From NCBI RefSeq assembly GCF_002197845.1, contig NZ_NIDE01000020.1, positions 233,460-297,459 on the forward strand: a DNA stretch of 64,000 nucleotides. The letters run 5' to 3'. Positions 5,572 to 57,518 of this stretch are shown here, one piece after another. How positions within the stretch are numbered: position 1 is the first letter of the stretch; each line of letters begins with the position of its first letter. The notes beneath the pieces were generated by a model. The model was not told the DNA's origin. It saw nothing but the letters and a program-made list of their open reading frames with translations, and did not search any database. The stretch is from Fimbriiglobus ruber. GTDB lineage: Bacteria > Planctomycetota > Planctomycetia > Gemmatales > Gemmataceae. The position numbers were made by a program, and so were the translations under genes.

Positions 5572-6378
5572 TCACGCTGGCGGCAAAGCGAACTGGATGC
5601 CCATGCTGGCAAATTCTGGCAGGGCTTTAGTCAACTTGTCGGTGCCCCATTTGTTCACGATGTACTCGGGCATGTGGGTGGGCAGGTAGATCTGGTGAAG
5701 CCACCGACGGAAGTTGAGCAGCTCGGCATCGGGATAAGCCCACGGTCTCACAGTCCCTCGCGGGTCGCCATCGGGGAATGTGTACTGGTATCGGACGGCG
5801 TCTCCGGCCCAGACCTTACCTTCGCGGAACCAACCCCACCTCTTGCCAATCGAGCCGTCGAGCAAGTCGTACTGCTTGGCCTCGCAACCGGCATGTCCGA
5901 ACAGCCGCTCCGCCGCGATCAAGATTTCGGCACCCTCGATGAAAATGCACCAATGACCGGCCGGGATGTGCTTGCGGACCTGCATCGTCCAATGGACACG
6001 GTCGGCGTAGGGCTTGAGGGTCAGTACCGGAGGCGTGGACGGGGGCGGGTAGACGCCGTGCTTACGGATGCTGGGGACGACTTCGCCGAAAACCCATCGC
6101 CTGAACCGCTGGGCCTCTTCCTTCCGAGAATTGGCAACGAGTGAATAGAGACCAGATTCGTAAACCGTTGCAAGTCTTTGCTTTCCGCCAAGGGTATATG
6201 TTGAACATACACCCTTTTCGTCGGGCTGTAGCACCGCCAGGGCTTGGCTGACGTTCTTGATGCCGAGTACCCGACATACGTCGGCCGCCACCCACTCCGG
6301 CTTGTCGGCGGTGCCGACGAAGCGGACTTGCTGGCCCTCGAATTCGAGAGGCAGCATCTTCGCGATCTGGGCGCTCAT
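5572..6378 (-). CDS. Bro-N domain phage antirepressor-like protein
   Basis: About 268 residues from ATG 6378 (an ATG at 6465 adds a poorly structured 29 residues). The N-terminal 110 residues match the Bro-N fold: LEFEGQQVRFVG, WVAADVCRVLGI, then LATVYESGLYSLVANSRKEEAQRFRRWVFGEVVPSIRKHG, the usual end of the domain. Bro-N proteins bind DNA or repressors and in phages act as antirepressors. The C-terminal 150 residues are Trp-rich and unrecognised. It converges on the repressor, consistent with a pair controlling lysogeny. Confidence 0.75.
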   Translation of the reverse strand: MSAQIAKMLPLEFEGQQVRFVGTADKPEWVAADVCRVLGIKNVSQALAVLQPDEKGVCSTYTLGGKQRLATVYESGLYSLVANSRKEEAQRFRRWVFGEVVPSIRKHGVYPPPSTPPVLTLKPYADRVHWTMQVRKHIPAGHWCIFIEGAEILIAAERLFGHAGCEAKQYDLLDGSIGKRWGWFREGKVWAGDAVRYQYTFPDGDPRGTVRPWAYPDAELLNFRRWLHQIYLPTHMPEYIVNKWGTDKLTKALPEFASMGIQFALPPA

Positions 6379-6512
6379 TCTGTACCCCGAAAGGATCTGG
6401 TCGACGCTAAACCGAGACCGCACACGATCGGTCCCGAGCGGCGGAGAATATGGGGGCACCGACATTGAACCGCAGGCGGTAACCTGCTATGATGTGCTTT
6501 ACTGGTTAGCAC

Positions 6513-6550
6513 ATAGCCGGGCCGCATCCCCCACGGAGCGGCCCGGCTAT
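6513..6550. repeat. 13-bp perfect inverted repeat (hairpin)
   Basis: ATAGCCGGGCCGC at 6513-6525 pairs with GCGGCCCGGCTAT at 6538-6550 across a 12-base loop and is followed by TCTCTTAT. It lies upstream of the antirepressor start, so on the plus strand it could be a terminator for transcripts entering from the left, or on the minus strand a leader structure. A GTCTAGAC core like the repressor boxes occurs nearby at 6626-6633. Confidence 0.4.
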
Positions 6551-6764
6551 TCTCTTATAGCCGACACCCATCGCGCGGTACAAGGTTCGTAACAATTTTC
6601 GATGTCAGTAGCGGGGGAATCACTCGTCTAGACGTTTGCTATTCTTCGCGGCCCGTGGCAAACCCGTGGCAAACCTTCGGCGACTATTGGCGATTACCAA
6701 CGATTGACGTTCTTGAAAATGCCTTGAATTTGAGATGTTTCGGACGCTGGCGAGTGTACAAGTG

Positions 6765-6818
6765 TCGATTCTAATCGGTTTTCAAGACCGGTGCATTAAA
6801 CCACTCTGCCACCTCTCC
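6765..6818 (-). tRNA. 5' half of tRNA-Ser(TGA), probable attachment site
   Basis: On the minus strand GGAGAGGTGGCAGAGTGG begins a textbook tRNA-Ser: acceptor 5' strand, D-arm and anticodon arm with loop CTTGAAA (anticodon TGA). The match ends right after the anticodon stem; no long variable arm or T-arm follows. The missing half lies on the side of the phage-like genes. Crossover in an anticodon arm is a known habit of tyrosine integrases, so this is probably the attachment scar (core about 6776-6790) at the right end of the integrated module. Confidence 0.65.
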
Positions 6819-7044
6819 TTGTTGCCCCGCAACGACTTGCGTCGACCGTTCCTTTCGCCGTGAGAAGAACTTGGGAACATCCTCAAGACTTTCCCCCCGG
6901 TATTGTACAGGGTGGCAAACGCCTGGGTGAGTTGAAATCTGGGTGGTGGAGCCTCTTGCGCGTTTCATTTAGGGCTGTGAATTCTTGGAGAAACGGGTTC
7001 TCCTCAAATCGTCATCCCCCACGGAGACCAGCGATTTTGCTCGT

Positions 7045-8685
7045 CGCCAGTCATTTTTTCGCCGTTTTCGCGATTTCTACCCCACTTCCCCTGTTAGGCG
7101 GGGAAGCCTTGCGCGTCGTTCTGGAAAGGCTTCTTTTCCAGGAGATACGCCATGATCGTCCATGCCAACAAACCCCTCTTCGCGTGGGATGAACTCCAAC
7201 ACTCGCCCACCCTCGCCACCATTCGCGCGGCCCTCGAAGCCATCCCGGACGCACCACTCCTCCACGCCCTCCAACAGCGGCGTCACCGCGGATGCGACAC
7301 GTACCCCGTCCGCGTCCTGTGGGGCGTACTCCTCCTCGCCATCCTCCTCCGACACACCACGACCGAGGCGTGCCTCGAGGAACTCCGACGCAACGCCCCC
7401 CTGCGTCTGCTCATCGGCATCGCATCCGAGGACGCCGTGCCGCACGGCTGGAACCTGACCCGCTTCCTCGCCGTCCTCGGACAGCCCGAACATCTCACCC
7501 TCATGCGGGACCTCTTCGACCACATGGTTCAGCGACTCGGCCTCGCCGTTCCCGACCTCGGCACCCACACGGCCGGCGATTCCACCGGCCTGCGGGGGCG
7601 GCTCGAACCCCATGCACAACGCCGGGCCGGTGAGGTCGCCGACGGACTCCCCCAGGCCAGCGGCGGACGCAAGGAGTACAAGGACGACGACGGCCACGTC
7701 ACCAAAGTCGTCGAATGGTTCGGGTACAAACTGCACCTGCTCGTCGACGTGAGACACGAAGTCGTCTTGGCGTTCGACATCAGCGACACCAAGGCCGGCG
7801 ACAACGAGCGGATTGACGCTCTGGTCGACCAAGCCGAGGCGAACCTACCCGCCGACCGCATGAAAACGCTGGCCTACGACAAGGCGGCGGACGACATTAA
7901 GGTCCACGAGGTGCTCCACGATCACGACATCAAACCGGTGATCCAGAACCGGTCGTGTGGGCCGAAGGACGGCGAGCGGGAGAAGGTGATCGGCGGTCGG
8001 GTGCCGCTGCACGTGGTCCACGACGAAGCCGGTACGGTCTACTGCTACGACACGACCGGCCCGGCCCCGGTCCGCCGGGCGATGAGTTACGCGGGCCACG
8101 AGAAGGATCGCGGGACATGGAAATATCGGTGCCCGGCCCGGGTGGAAGGGTTCGCGTGTGGCAGCGAGGCCAAATGCAACGAGGGGAAGGCGTACGGGAT
8201 GACGGTGCGGGTGGACCAAGAGATCGACTTGCGACGGTTCCCGTCGATCCCGCGAGCCACGCCGCAGTTCGAGCGGCTGTACAAGGGACGGACCGCCGTG
8301 GAACGGGTAAATGATCGGCTGAAGGTGTTCTGGGGGTTGGACGACGGCAACGTGGTCGGCGCGCGTCGGTTCTGTGCGCACGTCTCGGCGGTGCTGTTGG
8401 TGCACTTGGCGTGTGCGACGTTGCTCGCGAAGGCGCAGCGAAACGAGGGATCCTTCGGAACGCTACGCCTGTCGCCGATTGCCAAGAAATTGGAAGAACT
8501 GGTGGCCTCGGAGAAGGCGACGGCCAAAACCTGACGTCCGACAGCCCAAGCGGATCCGCACCCGTCGCCCCCCCGTCGGGAAGGTGGTGTTGCGCGCCGA
8601 GAGACACCGGAACAGCCGTCTGGTCTCCGCGCGCACCTGCCCCCGACCCACGGCGACCGAGAACCGCCGAAAAAATCCACATCGC
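7045..8685 (+). mobile_element. DDE insertion sequence inserted in a PAS sensor gene
   Basis: The ends were placed from imperfect inverted repeats (ATTTTTTCGCCGTT near 7053 and its counterpart ATTTTTTCGGCGGTT on the minus strand near 8670) and from the abrupt end of the PAS gene at about 8690. No target duplication was found, and the rest of the sensor gene is not on the other side, so a deletion accompanied or followed insertion. Positions 6819-7044 hold no gene I can support. Confidence 0.55.
7152..8534 (+). CDS. DDE transposase (DUF772-type N-terminal domain)
   Basis: A 460-residue transposase with a GGAG ribosome-binding site before ATG 7152. The N-terminal domain (residues 30-110: VRVLWGVLLLAILLRHTT, LRLLIGI, WNLTRFLAVLG) is the DUF772 pattern of IS5/IS1182/IS4-like enzymes. 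The catalytic domain shows Asp in AGDSTGLRG, a second Asp in LAYDKAADD and a Glu in TAVERVNDRLKVF. The subfamily was not resolved. The frame is intact, so it may be active. Confidence 0.75.
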   Translation: MIVHANKPLFAWDELQHSPTLATIRAALEAIPDAPLLHALQQRRHRGCDTYPVRVLWGVLLLAILLRHTTTEACLEELRRNAPLRLLIGIASEDAVPHGWNLTRFLAVLGQPEHLTLMRDLFDHMVQRLGLAVPDLGTHTAGDSTGLRGRLEPHAQRRAGEVADGLPQASGGRKEYKDDDGHVTKVVEWFGYKLHLLVDVRHEVVLAFDISDTKAGDNERIDALVDQAEANLPADRMKTLAYDKAADDIKVHEVLHDHDIKPVIQNRSCGPKDGEREKVIGGRVPLHVVHDEAGTVYCYDTTGPAPVRRAMSYAGHEKDRGTWKYRCPARVEGFACGSEAKCNEGKAYGMTVRVDQEIDLRRFPSIPRATPQFERLYKGRTAVERVNDRLKVFWGLDDGNVVGARRFCAHVSAVLLVHLACATLLAKAQRNEGSFGTLRLSPIAKKLEELVASEKATAKT

Positions 8686-50211: not shown

Positions 50212-51054
50212 ATGGCTCCTTGGAACGGCTTGATCGAACGCCTGCGGCCGAAATCCTATGGCCGCAAACACCCGCTCATCCTCATTAACGGGCTCGCCGA
50301 GCAGCACGAATCCTGGTTCCGAAACCGGCGGTTCTGGAGCCGGTATTTCGACGTTCACACACCGAACATCCTGGTTTACGACGGGGCGGCCCTCCACCGC
50401 CGGATCGAGAAGAAAGAACCGATCACGGTCGACTATCTGGTCGACCAGCTGTACTTGTACGTAGATCAGTTTGTACAAAACCCGCCCTACCATCTGGTCG
50501 CGAGCAGTCTGGGGGGTAAGGTCGCGGTCGAATTCGCGGTCCGCTACCCGGAACTCGTTGATCGGGTCGTTCTTCTCTGCCCGTCCGGGATGGGCGACGA
50601 AGAAAAACTCCCGATCATGGAAGGCGTCCGTAAGCAAGACATGTACACCGTGGTCAAAAGCGTGTTCCACCGGACGCGCACCGTGGACCGCGACATCGTG
50701 AAATACTACAAATTGGCCATTAACAGTCGCAAGTGGAAGACGGGGTTACTCCGGACGGTTCGCGGGACACTGGAATATACAGTTCGAGCCAAGATGAAAG
50801 ACGTTCGGGCGATGACCCTGTTGGTCACCGGGGATAAAGACCGGATCTGTGATCCGGCTACCGCCGAACAAGCGGCACACGAATTGCCAAACGGACATTT
50901 TCTTTCGATTCCGAACTGCGGGCACGCGCCCCAAATCGAACGACACTGGCTAATCAACCGGCTGGTCGTCCATTATTTGACGGCGCCCAACCCGACCGCG
51001 AAACCTCGCTGGACCAAACTCCTTCTCGCTAAACCCACCCGAGCCTCGAAATGA
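50212..51054 (+). CDS. Alpha/beta hydrolase, first gene of a three-gene operon
   Basis: A 280-residue cytoplasmic hydrolase from ATG 50212. The fold is shown by LILINGLAEQHESWFRN (oxyanion loop, residues 22-38), the nucleophile elbow VASSLGGKVAVEFA (about 97-110), the acid in TGDKDRICDPATAEQ and the catalytic His in PNCGHAPQIERHW. It resembles small-molecule ester hydrolases and acyltransferase-like enzymes. Its stop overlaps the methyltransferase start (ATGA), so translation is coupled. With a PmtA-like methyltransferase and a GH3-family ligase next to it, it may act in lipid or fatty-acyl metabolism; the substrate is unknown. Confidence 0.85.
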   Translation: MAPWNGLIERLRPKSYGRKHPLILINGLAEQHESWFRNRRFWSRYFDVHTPNILVYDGAALHRRIEKKEPITVDYLVDQLYLYVDQFVQNPPYHLVASSLGGKVAVEFAVRYPELVDRVVLLCPSGMGDEEKLPIMEGVRKQDMYTVVKSVFHRTRTVDRDIVKYYKLAINSRKWKTGLLRTVRGTLEYTVRAKMKDVRAMTLLVTGDKDRICDPATAEQAAHELPNGHFLSIPNCGHAPQIERHWLINRLVVHYLTAPNPTAKPRWTKLLLAKPTRASK

Positions 51055-51671
51055 GTGCATTGACCCCGCGTCCTCAAGCTTCAGTTCCCGTCTCGCCCGA
51101 CTGGTGGTTGATGCTGCGGAAGTTCGCGCAACACGGGACGTCCATCGCGTCCTTCGCGCCGAGTTCCCGGTTCCTCGCCCGAACGATCTGCAAGGGCATC
51201 GATTACGACGCGGCCAAGTGCATTGTCGAACTCGGTGCGGGGACCGGCCCGATCACCAACGAACTCGTTCGCCAAGTGCGAGCGGGGACACGGCTGGTGA
51301 TCGTCGAACTGGATCCGGACTTCTGCAAGCGGTTGCGCGCCAAGTTTCCTGGTGCGGACATCGTCGAAGGCGATGCGGCCCACATGGACAAGCTCCTGGC
51401 CGACCGCGGCATCACCCAGGTCGACCACGTCGTCTCCGGCCTGCCGCTCCCGTCATTCCCGGACCAGCTGCGCGGCGACATTCTCGCGAGTGTGGCCCGG
51501 AGTCTCGCCCCGAACGGGACGTTCCGGCAGCTGACCAACATGCCGTACATTTATTGGAAGTTGTACCGCGGCTATTTCTCGGACGTGCGATTCAATCTCG
51601 TCCCCCTGAATCTGCCCCCCGCGGGCGTGTACGTCTGCCGCGGGTATCACTCCGCCCCGGTTGCCCCGTAG
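51051..51671 (+). CDS. PmtA-like phospholipid N-methyltransferase / SAM-dependent methyltransferase
   Basis: A 206-residue class I methyltransferase. An N-terminal helix (WWLMLRKFAQHGTSIASFAPSS) typical of PmtA-like and rRNA-dimethylase-like enzymes precedes motif I VELGAGTGPIT (about 63-73), the acidic VIVELDPDFC (about 83-92) and the VSGLPLPSFPDQ motif IV. PmtA enzymes methylate phosphatidylethanolamine towards phosphatidylcholine using S-adenosylmethionine at the inner membrane face. Coupled to the hydrolase upstream (ATGA overlap). The substrate is inferred from family resemblance. Confidence 0.8.
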   Translation: MSALTPRPQASVPVSPDWWLMLRKFAQHGTSIASFAPSSRFLARTICKGIDYDAAKCIVELGAGTGPITNELVRQVRAGTRLVIVELDPDFCKRLRAKFPGADIVEGDAAHMDKLLADRGITQVDHVVSGLPLPSFPDQLRGDILASVARSLAPNGTFRQLTNMPYIYWKLYRGYFSDVRFNLVPLNLPPAGVYVCRGYHSAPVAP

Positions 51672-51774
51672 GTCGCCGCAGCCATCGACTATTCGCCGGC
51701 CCACGGGAAAGAAGCCCGTGGGCCGTCGCGTTTCGCCAGCCGGGCGGAACCGTGTTCTCGTGGAGACTGAAGAG

Positions 51775-53355
51775 ATGACAAGCACCGCGTGGCTGGCGCC
51801 CGTTGCCGGGTCGGCCCTCGTTCGCCGGGTCGCCGACGCCGGGTTCCTCCCCTTCGCCCGTTCGCGGGTCCGGCACCTCGACCGGATGAACGTCGCCGCG
51901 GTTCAGACGGCCACTCTCCAGCGCCTCGTCCGAATGGCCCGGGACACGCAGTTCGGCCGGGAACACGACTTCGCCAGCGTCCGGACGATCGCGGATTACC
52001 AGGCGCGAGTACCAGTGCGGGAGTACGAGGAGTTTTGGCAGAAATACTGGAAAGATGCCTACCCGCGGCTCGCGGGCGTCACCTGGCCATCGGCCATCCC
52101 GTACTACGCTCTCTCCTCCGGGACCACGAGCGGAGCGACTAAGTACATACCGGTCAGTAGCGAGATGGTGGCGTCGAACCGTAAGGCAGCTCTAACGACA
52201 CTTTCCCTTTTTCGGAACGTCTATTCCGAAGCTCGAACGCTGACCGGGAAGTTCTTTTTCCTGGGCGGCAGCACCGATCTCCGCCAGCAACCCGATGGGA
52301 GTCTCGCGGGCGACTTGAGCGGCATCGCGGCGAAGGAAGTCTCGGGCCTGATGCGGCCGTACACCTACCCCTCTCTCGAAGTGGGCCTCATCTCGAATTG
52401 GGAGACCAAACTCGCGCGACTCGCCGAGGAGTCCGTTCGCGAACCGATTACCGCGATCAGTGGCGTCCCGTCGTGGGTCTTGAAGATGTTCGACGCGGTG
52501 AAACAGCAAACTGGCAAGAAGACGATCGCCGATATCTGGCCGATGTTGCGTTTGATCGTCCACGGTGGGACCAAGTTCGACCCGTACCGAGACGTTTTCA
52601 AATCGGAGATCGGGAACGACGCGGTTAAGTATTGCGAAGTTTACCCCTGTTCGGAAGGGTTCGTCGCCACCGAAGATCCGCGGCACCCGGGTTTGCTACG
52701 AATGGTCCCGGACCACGACATTTTCTTCGAGTTCATCCCGCGGAACGAACTCGGCTCGCTTCGCCCGACCCGGCACACGCTCGCGAACGTGGAACTCGGG
52801 CTCGAATACGCGGTGGTCGTCACCAGCTGTGCCGGGTTGTGGGGCTACCTCATCGGGGACACGGTCCGTTTCGAAAGCCGAACGCCGCCGTTGATCCGGT
52901 TTACGGGGCGAACGAAATATTTCCTCTCGGCCTTCGGCGAACACTTGATTCAAGAGGAGATCGATGGGGCCGTCGCGAAAGCCGCTCACGACTGTGGCGT
53001 CACCGCCGTCGATCACCACGTCGGGCCGATCTTCCGGACCGCCCCGGGAATGCCGGGCCGCCACTTGTATTTGGTCGAATTCCGCGGGCCACCGCCCGCG
53101 GACCTGGATGCATTCGCGCGGGTACTCGACGGCGAACTGATTCGCATGAACGAGGACTATGCCGCTCACCGAGCCGGCGACCTCACGATGCTCAAACCGG
53201 AAATCCGCGTGGTCCCGCCGGAAGGGTTTAGCGAGTGGATGAAAGCTCACGGGCGGCGGGTCGGCGGCCAGATCAAAGTCCCGCGGATGGACAATAGCGG
53301 GGCACTCACAACCGAACTCGCAACCTGGTTCGCGGGGAGAGGGAGTGGAGTTTGA
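51775..53355 (+). CDS. GH3-family acyl-adenylate ligase-like protein
   Basis: A 526-residue protein from ATG 51775, 103 bases after the methyltransferase. Family features: QFGREHDFASVRTIADYQAR near the start, the ATP-binding YALSSGTTSGATKYIPVS (about 117-134), FRFTGRTKYFL-type RFTGRTKYFLSAFGEHL (about 380-395), IQEEIDGAV and the C-terminal KVPRM. GH3 proteins adenylate a carboxylate and conjugate it to an amine; plant members make amino-acid conjugates of hormones, and bacterial members are largely uncharacterised. Probably cotranscribed with the hydrolase and methyltransferase. Confidence 0.88.
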   Translation: MTSTAWLAPVAGSALVRRVADAGFLPFARSRVRHLDRMNVAAVQTATLQRLVRMARDTQFGREHDFASVRTIADYQARVPVREYEEFWQKYWKDAYPRLAGVTWPSAIPYYALSSGTTSGATKYIPVSSEMVASNRKAALTTLSLFRNVYSEARTLTGKFFFLGGSTDLRQQPDGSLAGDLSGIAAKEVSGLMRPYTYPSLEVGLISNWETKLARLAEESVREPITAISGVPSWVLKMFDAVKQQTGKKTIADIWPMLRLIVHGGTKFDPYRDVFKSEIGNDAVKYCEVYPCSEGFVATEDPRHPGLLRMVPDHDIFFEFIPRNELGSLRPTRHTLANVELGLEYAVVVTSCAGLWGYLIGDTVRFESRTPPLIRFTGRTKYFLSAFGEHLIQEEIDGAVAKAAHDCGVTAVDHHVGPIFRTAPGMPGRHLYLVEFRGPPPADLDAFARVLDGELIRMNEDYAAHRAGDLTMLKPEIRVVPPEGFSEWMKAHGRRVGGQIKVPRMDNSGALTTELATWFAGRGSGV

Positions 53356-53439
53356 TGTCGGCACATTCGTCCGCAGGGTCCGGATCAAAACTCTCGATTG
53401 CCTCGATAACCGTAACCGTGGCGACCCGCCGGTCTTAAA

Positions 53440-53831
53440 ACAGGGGTTTCAGCGCAATAAATGCAAAAAATGCTCCCAGGCACCACGGCTCGACAGTCGC
53501 GGAGACGCGCCGGCCCCAAAACAGGGGGTTTCAGCGCAATAAATGCAAAAAATGCGATACTTCTCGCTCGACGCGACAAGATTTGGAGTGCGGCGCTTTA
53601 CCGCCGCTTTTGTTTCGGGATTAGCCCAATTTAGCCCCTGCCAAGGTCGAGTCCCGTGCCAGCTATCCGGGGTCCGCTTGGCGCTCGGCGACGCTTCGGA
53701 TGCCAGAAACAAAAACAAAAGCGGCGGTAAAGCGCCGCACTCCAAATCAAGTACACCTCATAAGATCGCGCCGGGTGCAGTCGCGTCGAGCGAGAAGTCT
53801 CAAAAATGCTCCCAGGCACCACGGCTCGATG
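53440..53831. repeat. Complex intergenic repeat block
   Basis: Contains direct copies of GGTTTCAGCGCAATAAATGC (about 53444 and 53525) and of ATGCTCCCAGGCACCACGG (about 53470 and 53807). Within lies a large imperfect inverted repeat: GGAGTGCGGCGCTTTACCGC at about 53585 and its complement at about 53720, with outer arms CTTCTCGCTCGACGCGAC and their complement at about 53780. No ORF. It resembles a family of dispersed planctomycete intergenic repeats or a MITE-like element in the gap between convergent genes. Confidence 0.65.
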
Positions 53832-56060: not shown

Positions 56061-56201
56061 TCCAGGTCTTCGTTACCCGTCGGCAGGCTCGACCCGGTGA
56101 AGTAAACGGTCCGCGAGTATTCAAACATCGTGCCCGATCGGCACTCCCGGCGAGTTATAATTCTTCTCCAGGTGCGTGGGTTCCTAGCTGAGGGCTTACC
56201 G

Positions 56202-56813
56202 ATGCGGGCGGTGATCGTGGATCTCCCGAAACACTGGCTGGCCGAGCGGAAGAACTCCGAGGCCGCCCAATGGGACGAGATGTGGAACGGGGTACTGCAC
56301 ATGCCGCCCATGCCCAACGGGATGCACCAGGACTTTAACGGCGACCTCCGGGATTATTTGAAACGCAGGTGGGCGAAACTGAACAGCGGATTCGTCCGGT
56401 GCGAGGTCAACCTGACCACTCCCGAAGACGAAGTTGAGTGGACACACAACTACCGCATTCCCGACCTCGTACTCGTCAGCCGCGACCGACTCCACATCGA
56501 CAAAAATGCTTACATGGCTGGAGCGCCTTTGGTCGTGGTGGAGATCCGGTCGCCGGGGGACGAGACGTACGACAAAATCCCGCTCTACGCCGCCCTCGGC
56601 GTGCCGGAAGTCTGGGTCTTTGACCGCGACACGCGGGAGCCCGAGATTCACGTCCTCGGCACCGGACCGGGGTATCAGCTTCTACCCGCGGACCAGGACG
56701 GCTGGGTGCGGAGTCCGGCGACGGGGATCGAATTTCGCTCGGCCGCGGCGGGAAGGGTCGCGGCTCGGGTCGCCGGCGATCCGGCGACCACCGAAGAACT
56801 GCCGGACGTTTGA
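56202..56813 (+). CDS. Uma2-family endonuclease-like protein, paralogue 1
   Basis: A 203-residue PD-(D/E)xK-fold protein of the Uma2/DUF820 type. Start ATG 56202 aligns with the paralogue start (MRAVI). Motifs: a substrate-side helix LPKHWLAERKNSEAAQWDEMW, then YRIPDLVLVSRDR (Asp), APLVVVEIRSPGDETYDKI (Glu and neighbouring Lys/Asp) and YAALGVPEVWVFDRDT. These proteins are hugely expanded in planctomycetes and cyanobacteria and no function is established. The next gene is a close paralogue. Confidence 0.85.
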   Translation: MRAVIVDLPKHWLAERKNSEAAQWDEMWNGVLHMPPMPNGMHQDFNGDLRDYLKRRWAKLNSGFVRCEVNLTTPEDEVEWTHNYRIPDLVLVSRDRLHIDKNAYMAGAPLVVVEIRSPGDETYDKIPLYAALGVPEVWVFDRDTREPEIHVLGTGPGYQLLPADQDGWVRSPATGIEFRSAAAGRVAARVAGDPATTEELPDV

Positions 56814-56903: not shown

Positions 56904-57518
56904 ATGCGGGCCGTGATCGCGGATCTCCCGAAGCACTGGTTGGCCGAGCGGAAGAGTTCCGAGGCCGCCCAGTGGGACGAGATGTGGAACGGGGTACTGC
57001 ACATGCCGCCCATGCCCAACGGGATGCACCAGGATTTTGCGTTCACTCTCGGCGTTTATCTGTTGAATCGGTGGGCGAGACCGAACGGCGGTCTCATACG
57101 GCAGGAGGTCAACCTGACCGCGCCGGAAGACGAAGCCCAGTGGACGCATAACTACCGCATTCCCGACCTCGTACTCGTCAGCCGCGACCGGTTCCCCATC
57201 GACAAGAACGAGTACATGGCCGGTGCCCCGTTAGTGGTCGTGGAAGTCCGGTCGCCGGGGGATGAGACGTATGACAAGCTCCCGTTCTACGCCGCCCTCG
57301 GGGTTCCCGAGGTGTGGGTGTTCGACCGCGATACCCGGGTTCCCGAGATCTATGCCCTCGCTCCCGGAGCGGCGTACCAAATGTTGCCGGCCGGTGCGGA
57401 CGGTTGGATACTGAGCCCGGCGACCGGGATCGAGTTCCAGCACACCGGGGCGAACAAGGTCACTGTCCGGGTCGCAGGAGATCCGGCAACCGCCGACGAA
57501 TTACCGTACACGTGGTAG
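56904..57518 (+). CDS. Uma2-family endonuclease-like protein, paralogue 2
   Basis: A 204-residue close relative of the gene 90 bases upstream: both share PKHWLAERK, EMWNGVLHMPPMPNGMHQDF and the catalytic-region blocks YRIPDLVLVSRDR, VVVEVRSPGDETYDK and GVPEVWVFDRDT. Divergence is concentrated in the middle (residues about 48-75) and the C-terminal strand region, which suggests tandem duplication with divergence of the surface that contacts the partner or substrate. Confidence 0.85.
   Translation: MRAVIADLPKHWLAERKSSEAAQWDEMWNGVLHMPPMPNGMHQDFAFTLGVYLLNRWARPNGGLIRQEVNLTAPEDEAQWTHNYRIPDLVLVSRDRFPIDKNEYMAGAPLVVVEVRSPGDETYDKLPFYAALGVPEVWVFDRDTRVPEIYALAPGAAYQMLPAGADGWILSPATGIEFQHTGANKVTVRVAGDPATADELPYTW

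What the first reader, a model, noticed from the sequence alone, without database searches (positions are those of the whole stretch)
50212..53355. Hydrolase, PmtA-like methyltransferase and GH3 ligase in one operon
Two genes overlap by ATGA and the third follows at 103 bases. A phospholipid-type methyltransferase with an acyl-amine ligase (GH3) and a hydrolase suggests an uncharacterised pathway making or trimming an N-acylated or N-methylated lipid or signal molecule.
Basis: inference. Interest (0 to 1): 0.5.

Follow-up and report, generated by a model that had tools for sequence, protein, structure and literature searches.

The report
Planctomycete ornithine-lipid operon (olsI-olsG-olsH)
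Three neighbouring genes match a published recipe for a phosphorus-free membrane lipid, methylated ornithine lipid, so this finding is real but already explained.

Summary
In detail: three same-strand genes at 50212-51054, 51051-51671 (ATGA overlap) and 51775-53355 (103-bp gap). They are olsI, an olsG-type gene and olsH, the ornithine-lipid pathway published in 2025 for Singulisphaera acidiphila (PMC12493201), in the same order. The outer two pass NCBIfam's equivalog cut-offs (OlsI 450 vs 385 bits; OlsH 683 vs 620). The methyltransferase is closest to OlsG (240 bits) but misses that model's cut-off of 350; no match in 61 genomes of its family reaches it, though 27 score 172-257 bits. Predicted reactions: OlsH joins a fatty acid to ornithine with ATP, OlsI adds a second acyl chain, the OlsG type methylates the delta-nitrogen. 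The trio stands in order in 29 of 43 assessable loci of planctomycete-like OlsH and at the 30 best OlsG loci of the class. One side lead may be new: alphaproteobacterial-type OlsH homologues follow a penicillin-amidase-family gene, with gaps of at most about 0.5 kb, in 26 of 26 assessable loci, with no olsI or olsG seen nearby.

The parts
50212..51054 (+). olsI: alpha/beta-hydrolase-fold O-acyltransferase of ornithine lipid synthesis (280 aa); putative triad S99, D210, H238
   Evidence: NCBIfam NF052614 450 bits, cut-off 385; S99, D210 and H238 at least 95% conserved in 64 relatives; their role as triad is inferred from the fold
51051..51671 (+). olsG-type gene: SAM-dependent ornithine-lipid N-methyltransferase (206 aa); overlaps olsI by ATGA
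   Evidence: NF041658 240 bits, below its cut-off of 350; PmtA model 81 bits, below its cut-off of 250; SAM motif ELGAGTG (from E60) at least 95% conserved in 60 relatives; position between olsI and olsH recurs
51697..51725 (+). perfect 11-bp-stem hairpin in the olsG-olsH gap, no T-run after it; role unknown, perhaps tuning olsH expression
   Evidence: longest stem in 2000 letter shuffles of the gap was 10, but 6 of 621 window tiles of the same length reach 12 or 13
51775..53355 (+). olsH: GH3-family ATP-dependent N-acyl-ornithine (lyso-ornithine lipid) synthetase (526 aa)
   Evidence: NF052613 683 bits, cut-off 620; S115 and the SSGTTSGATK, EVYPCSE and GLWGYLIGD stretches correspond to published motifs I-III

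Best explanation
The three genes are the planctomycete ornithine-lipid operon olsI-olsG-olsH. OlsH adenylates a free fatty acid with ATP and Mg2+ and joins it to the alpha-amino group of ornithine, giving lyso-ornithine lipid. OlsI transfers a second fatty acyl chain onto the hydroxyl of the first, giving ornithine lipid. The OlsG-type enzyme then methylates the delta-nitrogen, probably three times, giving trimethylornithine membrane lipid. The first two steps are shown by experiment for Singulisphaera acidiphila (OlsH and OlsI in cell extracts, an olsH deletion in vivo); the methylation by OlsG was shown in an earlier paper that I could not open and know through papers citing it. For this genome all steps are inferred from orthology and gene order.
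For: Both outer genes pass NCBIfam equivalog cut-offs. Same gene order as Sinac_1601-1600-1599. Motif residues conserved, including S115, whose change to alanine abolishes S. acidiphila OlsH. Trio in order in 29 of 43 assessable loci and at 30 of the 30 best OlsG loci of the class (3 of them cut by a contig end inside olsI or olsH, L128, L129, L143). No PF13444 domain in this genome, the domain that I recall for OlsB and OlsF, as expected if this pathway replaces them. Two genomes marked 'same genus' as the window's (G050, G033) match records titled Fimbriiglobus in contig length and, for G050, olsH position. Trimethylornithines are major lipids of Fimbriiglobus ruber and of two other Gemmataceae (PMC7828035, passages), and F. 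ruber OlsH is one of 10 planctomycete sequences in the published tree, whose authors say olsH and olsI share an operon in all planctomycete cases.
Against: No experiment on this genome. The methyltransferase misses NCBIfam's OlsG cut-off (240 of 350 bits), so its naming rests on best hit and position; but no match in the 61 genomes of its family reaches that cut-off, while Gemmataceae members are reported to make trimethylornithines. The trio is not universal: of 43 assessable loci 7 have olsI next to olsH without olsG, and 7 have neither near olsH; for 4 of these last 7 the olsI-olsG pair lies on another contig, which goes beyond the paper's 'in all cases'. PF13444 is wider than OlsB/OlsF: it also rings in E. 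coli. The organism is uncertain: other records titled Fimbriiglobus (L051 = G038, L077 = G053) fall in another genus group than the window's.
Confidence: 0.93

Rival explanations
1. Same enzymes, other head group: the GH3 ligase of this branch prefers another amino acid (for example lysine) and the operon makes a different N-methylated aminolipid.
For: S. acidiphila OlsH shows minor activity with lysine and arginine, and the authors expect other specificities outside planctomycetes (PMC12493201).
Against: OlsH cut-off passed; trimethylornithines are reported as major lipids of F. ruber and other Gemmataceae; no PF13444 domain to make ornithine lipid otherwise.
Confidence: 0.04
2. The methyltransferase is a phosphatidylethanolamine N-methyltransferase (PmtA, making phosphatidylcholine) that happens to sit in the operon.
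Against: OlsG scores 159 bits higher; the gene recurs between olsI and olsH; a second methyltransferase (79 bits to OlsG, 72 to PmtA) lies beside phosphatidylserine decarboxylase and CDP-alcohol phosphatidyltransferase genes elsewhere in the genome and suits that role better.
Confidence: 0.02
3. One reading: a pathway that makes or trims an N-acylated signal, with the hydrolase as the trimming enzyme.
For: Hydrolase fold and an apparently intact Ser-Asp-His set; nearest solved sequence is a monoacylglycerol lipase, 1.8e-14.
Against: The OlsI family has a shown O-acyltransferase function and passes its cut-off here; the product in S. acidiphila is a membrane lipid whose loss slows growth and changes antibiotic sensitivity.
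Confidence: 0.01

Closest known systems
OlsH/OlsI/OlsG pathway of Singulisphaera acidiphila (Sinac_1599/1601/1600), PMC12493201
   Same: Same three families, same order, OlsH of the same length (526 aa), residue S115 conserved; no PF13444 domain in this genome, and no OlsB or OlsF reported for S. acidiphila.
   Different: Another planctomycete family; ATGA overlap of olsI and olsG; 103-bp hairpin-bearing gap before olsH; methyltransferase 46-52% identical over the aligned part to those of the 30 best OlsG loci, all in the family coded f3.
OlsBA and OlsF ornithine-lipid pathways
   Same: Same end product class (ornithine lipid).
   Different: Unrelated acyltransferases; PF13444, recalled as their N-acyltransferase domain, is absent from this genome.
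Plant GH3 acyl acid amido synthetases (GH3.8, JAR1)
   Same: Same fold family; PDB sequence hits 7dk8 6.4e-17 and 5ech 3.4e-11.
   Different: Plant enzymes conjugate hormones to amino acids; OlsH joins fatty acids to ornithine.

Membership tests
OlsH (NCBIfam NF052613) | score above the curated equivalog cut-off (620) | tested here: met
   683 bits
OlsH (NCBIfam NF052613) | GH3 nucleotide-binding motifs I-III with the essential serine S115 | tested here: met
   SSGTTSGATK with S115, EVYPCSE with S293, GLWGYLIGD (published motifs)
OlsH (NCBIfam NF052613) | ATP-dependent N-acylation of ornithine | not testable with these tools
   needs an enzyme assay
OlsI (NCBIfam NF052614) | score above the curated equivalog cut-off (385) | tested here: met
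   450 bits
OlsI (NCBIfam NF052614) | alpha/beta-hydrolase nucleophile, acid and histidine intact | tested here: met
   S99, D210, H238 at least 95% conserved in 64 rows; their role is inferred from the fold
OlsI (NCBIfam NF052614) | O-acylation of lyso-ornithine lipid | not testable with these tools
   needs an enzyme assay
OlsG (NCBIfam NF041658) | score above the curated equivalog cut-off (350) | tested here: not met
   240 bits. No match over it in 61 genomes of the window's family, 27 of which score 172-257 bits; 18 of 148 genomes of the class pass, all 18 in the family coded f3. So it is called OlsG-type, not an NCBIfam OlsG
OlsG (NCBIfam NF041658) | gene lies between olsI and olsH | tested here: met
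   window; also the 30 best of 59 OlsG matches of the class and 29 of 43 assessable OlsH loci
OlsG (NCBIfam NF041658) | SAM-binding motif of a class I methyltransferase | tested here: met
   VELGAGTGPIT; Pfam Methyltransf_25
OlsG (NCBIfam NF041658) | delta-N-methylation of ornithine lipid | not testable with these tools
   needs an enzyme assay or lipidomics
PmtA phospholipid N-methyltransferase (NF045881) | score above the curated equivalog cut-off (250) | tested here: not met
   81 bits
OlsB/OlsF N-acyltransferase pathway | PF13444 domain in the genome (link of domain to OlsB/OlsF recalled) | tested here: not met
   no match in G000 at E 0.001; the same search rings in 2 of 14 control genomes

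The most novel reading that the evidence does not exclude
The planctomycete operon is one form of a wider set of GH3-centred modules with exchangeable partners: OlsI with an OlsG-type enzyme here, OlsI without it in some planctomycetes, and in Alphaproteobacteria a neighbouring penicillin-amidase-family enzyme in place of both. (Lowered from 0.4 on re-check: PF13444 is not specific to OlsB, and a recalled catalytic motif was not found in the four amidases looked at.)
Probability: 0.35. Interest if true: 0.5.

Novelty: already known. Interest (0 to 1): 0.2.

Why it matters
It removes a supposed 'uncharacterised pathway' from the list: a planctomycete builds a phosphorus-free membrane lipid with a plant-hormone-type ligase, as already published. 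Small additions: NCBIfam's OlsG cut-off misses the window's whole family in the sample searched; gene order there is looser than the paper's sample suggests (split and olsG-less forms); and OlsH homologues in Alphaproteobacteria have a different linked partner that might be worth an experiment.

Tried and rejected
Considered that the methyltransferase's below-cut-off score marks a new activity: set aside, since the 27 genomes of its family with a strong match share it and Gemmataceae are reported to make trimethylornithines. Considered PmtA: rejected, see rivals. Considered the hairpin as a genome-wide repeat: rejected for the exact pattern with a 7-base loop, which occurs once in the genome; as a strong signal: weak, since 6 of 621 window tiles of the same length hold stems of 12 or 13 bp and the stems of relatives vary in length and sequence. 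No structure prediction was run.

Limits. One search used two peptide patterns and kept the best 80 of 333 confirmed relatives, so its counts describe those 80 only; no record titled Singulisphaera acidiphila is among them. I group the 80 as 50 planctomycete-like (L034-L082 and L084; L036 and L080 are titled Bacteroidales, L056 and L073 only bacterium; L036 matches a contig of G020, same family) and 30 others (L083, L085-L113). Dropped from the 50 before the 43: seven with under 0.83 kb held upstream of olsH (L040, L046, L054, L060, L061, L079, L080); two of these, L046 and L054, do show olsG. Neighbours were sought with the window's own proteins (tblastn), so very divergent ones could be missed. 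Papers PMC4463453 (OlsG), PMC5861812 (F. ruber genome) and 10.1128/AEM.02169-13 (methylated ornithine lipids) are not held; what is said of them comes from other papers or recall.

Full report
What is there. Three + strand genes, 50212-51054, 51051-51671 and 51775-53355, with an ATGA overlap between the first two and a 103-bp gap before the third. Pfam sees an alpha/beta hydrolase, a class I methyltransferase and three GH3 domains.

What they are. NCBIfam names all three families: OlsI, ornithine-lipid O-acyltransferase (450 bits, cut-off 385); OlsG, ornithine-lipid N-methyltransferase (240 bits, cut-off 350, so below it); OlsH, lyso-ornithine lipid synthetase (683 bits, cut-off 620). The pathway was published in August 2025 for Singulisphaera acidiphila, where the three genes lie in the same order (PMC12493201; abstract, results, discussion and the first part of the methods read; passages). 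There OlsH made N-acyl-ornithine in extracts with ATP and Mg2+, OlsI extract converted it to ornithine lipid, and an olsH deletion lost trimethylornithine lipid, grew more slowly and became sensitive to several antibiotics. Changing serine 115 of OlsH to alanine abolished activity; the same serine sits at position 115 here and is at least 95% conserved in 78 relatives.

Conservation. A scan of named genomes with an OlsH alignment kept 80 loci. Of 50 planctomycete-like ones, 43 hold enough upstream DNA to judge: 29 have olsI-olsG-olsH in order, 7 have olsI before olsH without room for olsG, and 7 have neither nearby. One MAG, DS2.012, holds two olsH genes, one in a trio (L048) and one alone (L057). 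In a second sample, the 30 best of 59 OlsG matches in 148 genomes of the class all have olsI before and olsH after on the same strand; in L128, L129 and L143 a contig end cuts olsH or olsI. In 61 genomes of the window's own family, OlsH passes its cut-off in 27, OlsI in 28 and OlsG in 0, though 27 genomes have an OlsG match of 172-257 bits. The OlsG miss is thus a matter of where the model's cut-off was set; 18 of 148 genomes of the class pass it, all in one other family, f3, where the published S. acidiphila motif I is found in 22 of 30 loci, so f3 is probably Isosphaeraceae.

The organism. G050 and G033 are marked 'same genus' as the window's genome; their contigs of 27,724 and 9,109 bases match records titled Fimbriiglobus in length and, for G050, in olsH position. 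That points to Fimbriiglobus, but not firmly: other records so titled (L051 = G038, L077 = G053) belong to a different genus group of the same family. The 12.36-Mb size fits F. ruber SP5 as I recall it. Trimethylornithines are reported as major lipids of Fimbriiglobus ruber, Limnoglobus roseus and Frigoriglobus tundricola, and mono-, di- and trimethylornithines for 'Gemmata-like strain SP5' (PMC7828035, passages; SP5 is named as the F. ruber type strain in PMC11279305, passages). Limnoglobus roseus itself carries the trio (L063). F. ruber OlsH is in the published tree. PF13444, the domain I recall for OlsB and OlsF, was not found in the window's genome.

Mechanism. Shown elsewhere: ligation of fatty acid to ornithine (OlsH), O-acylation (OlsI). 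Reported elsewhere and known to me only through citing papers: threefold delta-N-methylation (OlsG). Inferred here: that this genome's three proteins do the same. A second methyltransferase of the genome, about equally near OlsG (79 bits) and PmtA (72 bits), sits beside phosphatidylserine decarboxylase and CDP-alcohol phosphatidyltransferase genes and is the better candidate for phosphatidylcholine synthesis.

Regulation. The olsG-olsH gap holds a perfect 11-bp-stem hairpin (51697-51725) without a T-run; its exact pattern occurs once in the genome. Among the relatives' gaps several hold stems of 8-14 bp of differing sequence and many hold short ones or no gap at all, so a role is possible but unproven.

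A side lead. The 28 alphaproteobacterial-type OlsH homologues (L083, L086-L093, L095-L113; 43-48% identical to the window's; two records are titled only Proteobacteria and one Mycobacterium) have no olsI or olsG in the DNA held. In all 26 with upstream DNA to judge, a gene related to the L083 and L103 amidases lies upstream on the same strand: aligned ends within 135 bp in 22, and 421-528 bp away in 4 (L090, L093, L095, L096). L086 and L087 hold too little sequence. Three of these proteins were scored by Pfam and all three are PF01804, penicillin amidase; the rest are linked by similarity. A recalled catalytic motif was not found in the four sequences looked at, and two of the four have a lipoprotein-like N-terminus by eye. 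The deltaproteobacterial L085 and the omnitrophotal L094 lack such a gene. Of three such OlsH homologues scored, the OlsH model gives 553-600 bits, under its cut-off. Eight such genomes all hold a PF13444 domain and none a match over the OlsI cut-off (best 67 bits), so the GH3 enzyme may serve another product there; but PF13444 also rings in E. coli, which the paper says normally forms no ornithine lipid. A search of held papers for two of 'GH3', 'penicillin acylase' and 'N-acyl amino acid' listed 8 papers; the OlsH paper has no 'penicillin acylase', and by their listings none of the others is on this pairing (listing only); a second search (listing only) added none.

Verdict. Real, correctly located, conserved, and already explained by a published pathway. 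Interest 0.2.

Noticed in passing
L083, L088-L093, L095-L113 (OlsH homologue at about 6001-7480 in most): In 26 of 26 assessable alphaproteobacterial-type loci the OlsH homologue follows a penicillin-amidase-related gene of about 760 aa (gap at most about 0.5 kb, sometimes overlapping; three of them scored as PF01804). Eight such genomes have a PF13444 domain and no match over the OlsI cut-off. An amide-forming ligase paired with an amidase, function unknown.
   Followed up: partly
L068, L069, L072, L073, L075, L076, L078: Loci with olsI before olsH and no room for olsG between: predicted to make unmethylated ornithine lipid unless a methyltransferase lies elsewhere.
   Followed up: no
L146:8942-10693 (+), G000:C14: A second GH3 protein of about 583 aa in the same genome, distant from OlsH (131 bits to the OlsH model); the capped list shows weak, similar-length GH3 frames in many genomes of the family (not counted). 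An alpha/beta hydrolase gene lies upstream. Function unknown.
   Followed up: partly
L094:5908-8439: Omnitrophota locus with an OlsH homologue (516 bits) tail to tail with a divergent OlsI homologue (259 bits).
   Followed up: no
L048 and L057: Two olsH genes in one MAG (DS2.012), one in a full trio and one without olsI or olsG nearby.
   Followed up: no
window 53417-53829: Stretch after olsH with three pairs of direct repeats of 28-33 nt and a perfect 36-nt inverted repeat (53580-53615 / 53713-53748, 97 nt apart), perhaps a small mobile or repeat element.
   Followed up: no
window 56130-56813 and 56904-57518 (+): Two neighbouring frames of very similar sequence, apparently a tandem duplication; by recall they look like Uma2-type (DUF820) proteins (not searched).
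   Followed up: no
NCBIfam NF041658 (OlsG): The curated cut-off of 350 bits is reached by no match in 61 genomes of the window's family, including genes sitting between olsI and olsH, so annotation by that cut-off will miss them.
   Followed up: yes
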